Shown piece after piece: positions 54,324 to 56,647 of a DNA stretch of 64,000 nucleotides. Origin of the DNA: Natrinema sp. SYSU A 869. Lineage in GTDB: Archaea > Halobacteriota > Halobacteria > Halobacteriales > Natrialbaceae. The stretch spans positions 2,046,001 through 2,110,000 of the forward strand of contig NZ_CP082249.1 in NCBI RefSeq assembly GCF_019879105.1, read 5' to 3'. The notes beneath the pieces are model-generated. The model saw only the letters and a program-made list of their open reading frames with translations, searched no databases and was not told the origin of the DNA. The position numbers were made by a program, and so were the translations under genes. Position 1 is the stretch's first letter. Each line of letters opens with the position of its first letter.

Positions 54324-56198
54324 CTATTCGTCCGTGTCCCAGACGTCCGCCAGCGGGCTCGAGCGGGAGGATCGTCCGGATCGGCGCGAGCGCGACGACG
54401 AACGATCGCTGTGGCCGCCAGTATCCGAGTCCGCCCCGCTGGCTCGGCCCTGCCGTGACGATCCGCTTTTCGACCCAACACTGGATCTGCCGCCCGAATT
54501 CGATGGTGTCTCGCCGAGTGCGGCCCGCGGTTCGAAGGCCGGGAGGTCCGGTCGCGACATGCGATCGACCTGTGCCTCGAACCAGTCCGGCATGTCCGTC
54601 CGGGCGCGATCGAAGCAATCCACCAGACTCGAGTCCGCAAGGTACGTCGCGCCGTAGTCGTCAGGGGCGCGGACGACCCGGCCACAGGCCTGAATGACGG
54701 TCCGGAGCGTCGTCCGGTAGTACCACGCCCACTGTCCCTCCTCGAGTCGGTGGGCCACTCGCGAGTCGCTCGTGTTGAGGAACGGGGCTTTACAGATGAC
54801 CTGCCAGCGGCAGAGATCGCCCTTGAGATCCAGCGCCTCCTCCATCTTCACCGAGAGGAAGACGCCGGGATCGTCACTGGCCTTCCACGCCTCGAGGGCG
54901 GCGTCGCGACCGTCGCGGTCGTGGGTTCGAACCCGGTTGCCGACGCCGAAGTCCTCGAGGAGATCGGCCAGCCGTTCCTGAATGTCGTAGGAGTGGGCGT
55001 GGATCAGCCCCTTCTCCTCGGGATGGTGTTGCATGAGCCGGACGATCGTCCGGGCGATCTTCGGCGTCGTCTCGTCGCGCTCGTCGTAGGTCATCTTCCC
55101 CTGGGTCACATCGTACAGCGGCCGATTCTCGACGGGGAACGTGTGCTCGACGTCGACCAGGGCGACGTCGTCGGGATTGAGTCCGACCTGCCGGCAGAAG
55201 GCGTCCTTGTTGAGGATCGTCGCCGAGAGGAGCGCGAACTTGTTGCCCCGGTCCCAGACGGTGTGCTGGAGGTACTTCTCGGGGTTCATCGGCTTGATCG
55301 TCAGCGGACCGCCCTGCGGTTCGTCATCGCCGTCGTCTCCGGTACCGCCATCGTCGCGGGACCGCAGTTCGGACTGATCGACCAGCCACGTCGTCGGGCT
55401 CTGCGGGTCGCGGTAGTCCGAGACGAACCACTCGAGTTCGCCGATGAGTTCCTGTAAACGGTCGCGTTCGCGCACGTCGGCGGGAGTGAGCGAGTCCTGT
55501 GCGAGCAGGTCATCCTTGCGGCGTGTACACGTCTGTGCGAGGCTCTCGGCGTAGCGCACGGCCCGCTCTACGTTCTCGACCTCGGGAACGCGAAGGTCAT
55601 CCCAGAACGGCACGGTTCGGGGGCCGAGCTGGATGGTCGCGTACATCTCGGCCCACTCGGCGAGACCGTGGGCCTCATCGACGACCACGACGTCGCGTTG
55701 GCGGAAGACCTCGCTGCCGGCGGTCTGCATGAAATAGGCGAGCGTCATCGCCGCGATTTCCCGGTTCGAGGCGATCGCTCGGTCCGAAAAGTACGGACAT
55801 CGGTGTTTGACGGAGCAGTCGTATCCCCGTTCGCGGACGCACGGTGCCTGGTTGACAGGCGTATCGCGTTCCTCCGGCAGGATGCAGGTGTAGTTCGACT
55901 TCCCGCGGATGACGTTGAGATCGGCCAGCAGGTCGTCAGCGGCCACGTCGTCTAACTGGGAGACCTGTGGCGTCGTGTAGTAGGCTCCCGTGGCATCGCT
56001 GGGGTTGCCCTCGTCCGCACGCCGAGCACAGCCGGCGACGGCGCGGGCCAGCAGGGACTTGCCACTGCCCGTCGGCGCGCGCACGAGCACGACGTCGTTG
56101 CCGGCCGCGAAGGCGTCGCGAACGTCGCGGAGGGCCTGCTCCTGGGTTCCGCGATAGCTCGGTGCGGGGAACTCCTCGAAGATCCGCTCGGTATTCAC
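54324..56198 (-). CDS. XPD/Rad3/DinG-family ATP-dependent DNA helicase
   Basis: A 624-residue superfamily 2 helicase. Walker A APTGSGKS at 41-48; Cys105, Cys120, Cys128 and Cys134 (YTCILPEER...QAPCVRERGYDCSVKHRCP) are the Fe-S cluster ligands of the XPD group; DEAH at 174-177; LLSATIL (motif III), and QACGRVVRAPDDYG (motif VI). 5'-3' helicases of this type act in repair and in resolving structured DNA. The tail after 560 is Ser/Arg/Gly-rich and disordered (RSSVGSKSGSSRQGRASGAD), unusual in an acidic proteome. Start at ATG 56198; longer than archaeal XPD mostly because of the tail. Confidence 0.92.
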   Translation of the reverse strand: MNTERIFEEFPAPSYRGTQEQALRDVRDAFAAGNDVVLVRAPTGSGKSLLARAVAGCARRADEGNPSDATGAYYTTPQVSQLDDVAADDLLADLNVIRGKSNYTCILPEERDTPVNQAPCVRERGYDCSVKHRCPYFSDRAIASNREIAAMTLAYFMQTAGSEVFRQRDVVVVDEAHGLAEWAEMYATIQLGPRTVPFWDDLRVPEVENVERAVRYAESLAQTCTRRKDDLLAQDSLTPADVRERDRLQELIGELEWFVSDYRDPQSPTTWLVDQSELRSRDDGGTGDDGDDEPQGGPLTIKPMNPEKYLQHTVWDRGNKFALLSATILNKDAFCRQVGLNPDDVALVDVEHTFPVENRPLYDVTQGKMTYDERDETTPKIARTIVRLMQHHPEEKGLIHAHSYDIQERLADLLEDFGVGNRVRTHDRDGRDAALEAWKASDDPGVFLSVKMEEALDLKGDLCRWQVICKAPFLNTSDSRVAHRLEEGQWAWYYRTTLRTVIQACGRVVRAPDDYGATYLADSSLVDCFDRARTDMPDWFEAQVDRMSRPDLPAFEPRAALGETPSNSGGRSSVGSKSGSSRQGRASGADSDTGGHSDRSSSRSRRSGRSSRSSPLADVWDTDE

Positions 56199-56413
56199 CG
56201 TTCGACTCAGGGCGCGGCCGCGTCCTAAAGGCTACGGACCGTCGCTCGCGATGAAGAGCGGCCGGATACCGATGGGCCGATATGGGCCAGTCAAACGAGA
56301 CCGAAACCGGCGGCTACCGGCCGGTATCAACCACCTACGGATCGACAGCGACCGGCAGCCCGGCGGGTAGCCGGCCGATTACAAATACGAAATCCGCCGT
56401 CGGGTTGACCTGC

Positions 56414-56502
56414 GGAAGGGTCGCTCAGCGGTAGAGCACCGTGGTGCCACCTGGTTCCGCGGCGGCATTTCGCCTCGTGGCGTTCAAATCCCACCCCTTC
56501 CG
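56414..56502 (+). tRNA. tRNA-like RNA with aberrant anticodon and variable regions
   Basis: The acceptor stem GGAAGGG (56414-56420) pairs with CCCTTCC (56495-56501), and can extend by two more pairs outside. The D arm is perfect: GCTC-AGCGGTA-GAGC (56423-56437). The T arm has the consensus loop GTTCAAATC with CCCAC, but the 5' side reads GTGGCG with one extra C (56477-56494). Between the arms are about 38 bases instead of 22, including GTGCCAC, which would put a GCC anticodon after U33 as for glycine, but the flanking stem does not pair well; CCGTG and CGCGG can pair around a 14-base loop. An intron, a decayed tRNA, or a tRNA-like RNA are all possible. ATTACAAATACG at about 56379-56390 could be its TATA box. 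Confidence 0.45.
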
Positions 56503-56647
56503 CTCGCGGCTGCGGACCGCGGTTGTGATTGTGCTTGTCATGGGGCGGTACACCGGTACCGTCACTTTCGCCTCCATTCCCCACTCGGCCATTTTTGCGG
56601 TGATTGATCCGGGACAGTCACTGGAACGTGTGCAACCTGGATTCGAT

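What the first reader, a model, noticed from the sequence alone, without database searches (positions are those of the whole stretch)
56414..56502. Tidy acceptor, D and T arms but an abnormal centre: tRNA-like RNA
Three arms fit a tRNA, yet about 16 extra bases lie in the anticodon/variable region and the T stem carries an extra C. It may be an intron-bearing or fragmentary tRNA-Gly, or a stable RNA derived from one.
Basis: partly seen in the sequence, partly recalled or inferred. Interest (0 to 1): 0.55.

Follow-up and report, generated by a model that had tools for sequence, protein, structure and literature searches.

The report
Conserved tRNA-shaped RNA without an anticodon
This stretch is a gene for a small tRNA-shaped RNA whose anticodon arm is replaced by a plain hairpin; versions of it occur across many salt-loving archaea, so it is probably a working RNA that does something other than decode mRNA.

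Summary
Window 56412-56504 folds like a tRNA (acceptor, D and T arms, elbow bases) but has no anticodon loop: a GC-rich hairpin sits there, a small hairpin replaces the variable loop, and one base is bulged in the T stem. All 29 genomes of the genus searched have one homologue. A covariance model scores at least 70 bits in 105 of 125 genomes of the family; a strict pattern matches 180 of 392 genomes of the order. In 65 of 65 model-found homologues the acceptor GGAAGGG/CCCTTCC and the 6-against-5 T stem are kept, while all eight pairs of the central hairpin show compensatory changes. A TATA-like box lies at a fixed distance upstream. There are two main genomic homes: beside a Rad3/DinG-like helicase gene, or just downstream of sdhA. 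Intact tRNA-Gly(GCC) genes exist elsewhere. Best reading: an independently transcribed, non-decoding tRNA-like RNA family, probably bound by a protein that recognises the tRNA top half. Expression, partner and function are not shown.

The parts
56366..56391 (+). conserved upstream element (GGTAG..) and TATA-like box GATTACAAATACGAA; likely own promoter
   Evidence: 91% identity in -40..-20 against 61-69% either side; box starts 35-37 bp before GGAAGGG in 70 of 77 distinct helicase-type genes, not found in 7; the motif is unique in the genome within 2 mismatches
56412..56504 (+). tRNA-like RNA gene as modelled; tRNA positions 1-73 correspond to 56414-56502
56414..56420 (+). acceptor stem, 5' strand GGAAGGG
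   Evidence: pairs never vary in 29 and 45 aligned sequences; 65 of 65 model-found homologues
56423..56437 (+). D arm GCTC-AGCGGTA-GAGC with A14, G15, G18G19
56439..56462 (+). hairpin in place of the anticodon arm: 6 bp, small internal loop, 2-3 bp, 4-nt tip; no anticodon loop
   Evidence: fold; 8 of 8 pairs with compensatory changes in 45 homologues
56464..56474 (+). small variable-arm hairpin GGC-ATTTC-GCC
56477..56494 (+). T arm GTGGcG-TTCAAAT-CCCAC with bulged C at 56481
   Evidence: 6-against-5 strands in 158 of 158 distinct pattern-found sequences and 65 of 65 model-found ones
56495..56502 (+). acceptor stem, 3' strand CCCTTCC, and discriminator-like base G; no CCA encoded
54324..56198 (-). 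conserved divergent neighbour: Rad3/DinG-type helicase (Helicase_C_2, DEAD_2); syntenic, not part of the RNA
   Evidence: Pfam; upstream on the opposite strand in 108 of 113 loci with the GTGGCG T arm

Best explanation
The locus is a dedicated gene for a non-decoding, tRNA-shaped non-coding RNA of haloarchaea. Shown by sequence: it has a promoter-like box at a fixed distance, keeps the tRNA acceptor, D and T arms and elbow bases, has swapped the anticodon arm for a freely evolving hairpin, and carries a conserved bulge in the T stem. Inferred: transcription starts within a few bases of the 5' end, the 3' end is cut by tRNase Z, and the RNA folds into a tRNA-like L. Having no anticodon it cannot decode, and the T-stem bulge should hinder binding by EF-1A. 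Most likely it acts as a stable tRNA mimic whose constant half is bound by a tRNA-recognising protein, which it titrates or regulates. The identity of that protein is unknown.
For: One homologue in each of 29 of 29 genomes of the genus; at least 70 bits in 105 of 125 genomes of the family (counted from the list); pattern in 180 of 392 genomes of the order, the reversed control pattern giving 0 in every genome row listed. Acceptor sequence and bulged T stem in 65 of 65 of the set not forced by a pattern. 11 pairs with changes on both sides against 3.0 in shuffles, 0 of 500 shuffles reaching it. No consistent anticodon arm: 28 of 158 distinct sequences could form 4-5 of the 5 pairs of a 5-bp/7-nt arm at offsets 0-2, and the loops of those printed disagree. 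AT-rich box near -28 in both classes. Syntenic homes.
Against: No transcript was seen here; expression is inferred. The protein-binding role is inference: no partner was found. The discriminator-like base varies (G 120, A 37, C 1 of 158), which argues against one fixed charging enzyme. The pattern is absent from 212 of 392 genomes of the order, so the RNA is not essential to haloarchaea as such. Unconstrained minimum-energy folds of L105, L128 and L154 are not the cloverleaf. Within the genus alone there is no covariation signal.
Confidence: 0.6

Rival explanations
1. Intron-bearing or otherwise processed tRNA-Gly(GCC) that is restored to a normal tRNA after splicing.
For: A GCC stands at roughly the right place and acceptor, D and T arms are tRNA-like.
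Against: The GCC is paired and not conserved; tip loops run from 3 to 15 nt across 158 sequences with no shared anticodon; the T-stem extra base would remain; two intact tRNA-Gly(GCC) genes exist.
Confidence: 0.03
2. tRNA pseudogene or integration relic kept by chance.
For: Haloarchaeal tRNA genes, and some of these genes, carry inverted partial copies of their own 3' end downstream, which could point to recombination at tRNA genes.
Against: 72 of 93 columns are invariant in 29 genomes while flanks diverge; compensatory changes keep the hairpin; promoter box conserved.
Confidence: 0.04
3. A t-element: a tRNA-like processing signal that makes RNase P and tRNase Z cut out flanking RNA.
For: Such elements exist in Haloferax upstream of 5S rRNA and are cut by both enzymes (PMC4326828, passages). 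One genomic class lies just downstream of sdhA on the same strand (53 of 91 loci with the GYGTGG T arm), where it could trim an mRNA.
Against: In the window class the promoter box is about 28 bp before the RNA, leaving no leader, and the 3' flank is not conserved. The other class has an AT-rich box at the same distance. No 5S rRNA, and no Rfam RNA except tRNA, lies in the 20 outgroup loci scanned.
Confidence: 0.12
4. A charged acceptor for a non-ribosomal use: a synthetase (SerRS is the best guess) aminoacylates it and another enzyme takes the amino acid.
For: Nearest tRNA of the genome is tRNA-Ser(TGA), with the same kind of variable arm and G73; SerRS does not read the anticodon (recalled).
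Against: A variable-arm hairpin is absent in some members (e.g. L105, L154; sequences, folds); N73 is A in 37 of 158.
Confidence: 0.15

Closest known systems
Haloferax t-elements (tRNA-like structure upstream of 5S rRNA; PMC4326828, passages)
   Same: tRNA-shaped, haloarchaeal, not a decoder; this RNA too would be expected to be a substrate of RNase P and tRNase Z
   Different: Not next to 5S rRNA; own promoter-like box; conserved acceptor sequence and T-stem bulge. The two were not compared letter by letter because the t-element sequence was not in hand
tRNA-Ser (class II tRNA)
   Same: Closest tRNA of the genome; GGC...GCC variable arm, G73, similar T arm
   Different: No anticodon loop, different D arm, bulged T stem, different acceptor stem
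tRNA-Sec of archaea (9/4 acceptor/T fold; recalled)
   Same: Two extra acceptor pairs in the window copy give a 9-bp stem; variable arm
   Different: No UCA anticodon; the outermost extra pair is unpaired in 17 of 45 homologues; D stem of 4 bp
YrlA / Y RNA of bacteria and MALAT1 mascRNA (recalled)
   Same: tRNA-like non-coding RNAs without a decoding role
   Different: No Ro60/TROVE match in the 14 genomes of this family shown, and in 111 of 117 genomes of the order sampled; no longer host transcript is implied here

Membership tests
decoding tRNA | tRNA covariance model score | tested here: met
   31.6 bits, just over the gathering score of 29; not reported in the whole-window scan
decoding tRNA | 5-bp anticodon stem with 7-nt loop and a conserved anticodon | tested here: not met
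decoding tRNA | 7-bp acceptor stem, D and T loops with elbow bases | tested here: met
   65 of 65 for acceptor, T8, G18G19 and TTCRANT loop
decoding tRNA | regular 5-bp T stem | tested here: not met
   one extra base in the 5' strand in 158 of 158 and 65 of 65
intron-containing archaeal tRNA | removal of an intron restores one conserved anticodon arm | tested here: inconclusive
   no shared anticodon or loop across 158 distinct sequences speaks against it; no explicit bulge-helix-bulge search was run
t-element | substrate of RNase P and tRNase Z | not testable with these tools
   needs in vitro cleavage
t-element | sits next to an RNA that it liberates (5S rRNA) | tested here: not met
   no Rfam RNA in the window at gathering threshold and none but tRNA in 20 outgroup loci; flanks not conserved
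tRNA-Sec | UCA anticodon | tested here: not met
Ro60-bound YrlA/Y RNA | Ro60 (TROVE) protein in the same genome | tested here: not met
   no TROVE match in G000; 6 of 117 genomes of the order have one

The most novel reading that the evidence does not exclude
A widespread haloarchaeal RNA family that has kept a tRNA's top half across tens of genera while discarding decoding, and that works as a charged or uncharged tRNA mimic, controlling a tRNA-dependent enzyme or donating an amino acid outside the ribosome.
Probability: 0.3. Interest if true: 0.85.

Novelty: new variant of a known kind. Interest (0 to 1): 0.62.

Why it matters
Standalone tRNA-like RNAs under strong selection are, to my knowledge, rare in prokaryotes, and this one is missed by ARAGORN and by the whole-window Rfam scan. 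A small, conserved gene with a fixed promoter box in culturable haloarchaea makes it directly testable what a cell does with a tRNA-shaped RNA that cannot decode, and which enzyme reads the invariant acceptor stem and bulged T stem.

Tried and rejected
Intron, fragment and pseudogene readings: see rivals. tRNA-Sec: the 9-bp acceptor of the window copy is not kept elsewhere. Weak model hits of 40-58 bits were checked only where fetched: L106 is a tRNA-Ser by its sequence; the four fetched hits outside the order (L248-L251) and L252 inside it are called ordinary tRNAs by ARAGORN, so no homologue outside Halobacteriales is claimed. No claim is made for L253-L256. L106 and L107 were dropped before model R2 was built. 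The model search of the order with R2 gave 268 of 392 genomes at E up to 1e-4, but this mixes in tRNA-Ser, so the stricter pattern count is used instead.

Haloferax s194 (PMC6104027, passages and section 6; 97 nt) was considered because some Haloferax homologues here span 97 nt from GGAAGGG to CCCTTCC. It is catalogued as HVO_2011s2 and reported without homologues in other haloarchaea (PMC3956466, section 5 and passages), so it is probably not this RNA; its sequence was not seen. The H. volcanii tRNA inventory names 52 tRNA genes and, in the passages and section read, describes none like this (PMC2584109). Ro60 as partner was rejected. Plasmid, phage and viral collections gave no match. A terminator-like hairpin right after the RNA is not clearly general: 45-nt downstream folds beat the shuffled mean in 68% of 77 and 64% of 80 cases. 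Nine paper searches listed nothing whose title or abstract start names such an RNA; only open-licence PMC papers are covered. PMC10927574 and PMC6490895 were seen as passages only.

Full report
What is there. The window is 64 kb of a 5.67-Mb haloarchaeal genome. Its genus matches Natrinema: several contigs of the same genus group have the same length as contigs that bear that name in the named collection. At 56414-56502 (+) the Rfam tRNA model aligns with 31.6 bits, with an anticodon-region and a variable-region insertion and an extra C in the T stem. The minimum-energy fold is cloverleaf-like: the anticodon arm is a 6-bp stem, an internal mismatch, a short inner stem and a 4-nt tip; the variable region is a 3-bp hairpin; the T stem has one bulged base.

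Conservation. DNA search of the genus found one homologue in each of 29 of 29 genomes. Identity to the window copy is 94% in the RNA and 91% in the block with the promoter box, against 61-69% in neighbouring upstream blocks and 62.5% then 44% downstream. A covariance model from these 29 sequences gave matches at E up to 0.001 in 117 of 125 genomes of the family. By its list, 12 of these 117 have only hits below 70 bits, so 105 of 125 are clear. Of the 12, two (L104, L105) are confirmed by sequence as members with a different central hairpin; L107 starts like a member but its 3' half is out of place, with the T-arm sequence reappearing further downstream; the others were not all checked.

Wider spread. 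A second model from 45 homologues and a strict pattern show relatives in other families of the order: the pattern matches 180 of 392 genomes and 44 of 95 genera, with no reversed-control match in any listed row. In the named collection a similar pattern gives 117 stretches; their titles are haloarchaea, except one unnamed euryarchaeal MAG whose sequence matches that of a genome placed in the order. A phylum-wide model search of 246 genomes reported hits outside the order only in one family; the four of these fetched are ordinary tRNAs.

Anatomy across the family. Of 65 sequences found by model, 65 keep the acceptor GGAAGGG/CCCTTCC, U8, G18G19 and the 7-nt TTCRANT loop, 63 keep C48, and 65 have six bases against five in the T stem: GTGGCG/CCCAC in 43, GCGTGG/CCCGC in 20, GTGTGG/CCCAC in 2. 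In the larger pattern-selected set the bulge, which the pattern does not fix, is present in 158 of 158 distinct sequences. The centre between D and T arms runs from 28 to 73 nt and folds into one or two hairpins, the first with tips of 3-15 nt. On 45 aligned homologues all eight pairs of the central hairpin have changes on both sides; the whole structure has 28 cells with such changes against 6.8 in shuffles, none of 500 reaching it, and sliding the partners destroys pairing. Within the genus alone there is no covariation signal, because nearly nothing varies. When folded without constraints, the cloverleaf is the minimum-energy fold for L111, L101 and L135 but not for L105, L128 and L154.

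No decoding. A 5-bp/7-nt anticodon arm with at least 4 pairs can be drawn in 28 of 158 sequences, by allowing three start points, and the loops printed share no anticodon. The genome's own tRNA set has two tRNA-Gly(GCC) genes and TCC and CCC ones; the best global alignment of the RNA is to tRNA-Ser(TGA), which shares the variable arm, T arm and G73. Descent from a class II tRNA is therefore plausible but not shown.

Gene unit. In helicase-type genes the box GATTACAAATACG (up to three mismatches) starts 35-37 bp before GGAAGGG in 70 of 77 distinct cases; in the other class positions -30 to -28 are 72-81% A+T. Given the usual 25-30 bp between TATA box and start in archaea (recalled), transcription would begin within a few bases of the RNA. 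The longer motif occurs once in the genome without mismatch; two other places have three mismatches.

Homes. Among 204 loci (duplicates between collections included), 108 of 113 with the GTGGCG T arm have the helicase gene upstream on the other strand; 53 of 91 with the GYGTGG T arm have sdhA upstream on the same strand; 18 of 91 lie near relatives of a polysaccharide deacetylase or glycosyltransferase; 25 of 204 had none of the four within the stretch held (protein identities). Some genomes have two copies. The RNA was not found on the plasmids, phages or viral contigs searched.

Interpretation. A constant top half and D arm with a freely changing central hairpin is what one expects if a protein or processing enzyme reads the tRNA-like half and the centre is a structural cap or a lineage-specific addition. 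The T-stem bulge lies where EF-1A would bind a normal tRNA (recalled), so its universal presence may keep the RNA out of translation. Which protein is bound, and whether the RNA is charged, are open; I favour a tRNA mimic acting on a tRNA-recognising enzyme. Nine literature searches listed no description of it.

Noticed in passing
tRNA genes of G000, e.g. L286, L268, L271; also downstream of the tRNA-like gene in L179, L177, L132, L105: Haloarchaeal tRNA genes carry, within about 100 nt downstream, an inverted partial copy of their own T arm and 3' end (16 of 51 with local score 24 or more); 17 of 79 GYGTGG-type and 2 of 77 GTGGCG-type tRNA-like genes have an exact 9-nt inverted T-loop core within 120 nt downstream, none upstream.
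   Followed up: partly
G000:C3:1753128-1753199 (L301): A low-scoring copy (37 bits) with the same acceptor stem as tRNA-His that ARAGORN does not call.
   Followed up: no
L135, L146, L174 and other Haloarcula/Halorientalis loci, tip of the central hairpin: The tip keeps a TGCCAGA-like motif in this group although the stem varies.
   Followed up: no
L094 and L096 (genomes G111, G114): Second, diverged copies with a different promoter region and no helicase neighbour found in the stretches held; a third genome of the genus, G112, also has two copies.
   Followed up: partly
L107 2133-2227 (genome G064): A homologue whose variable-arm region seems split by an insert: the 5' half fits, the T-arm sequence reappears further downstream.
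   Followed up: no
window 56504-56528: A hairpin of 11 pairs with a T-rich tail follows the RNA at once; it could be a terminator.
   Followed up: partly
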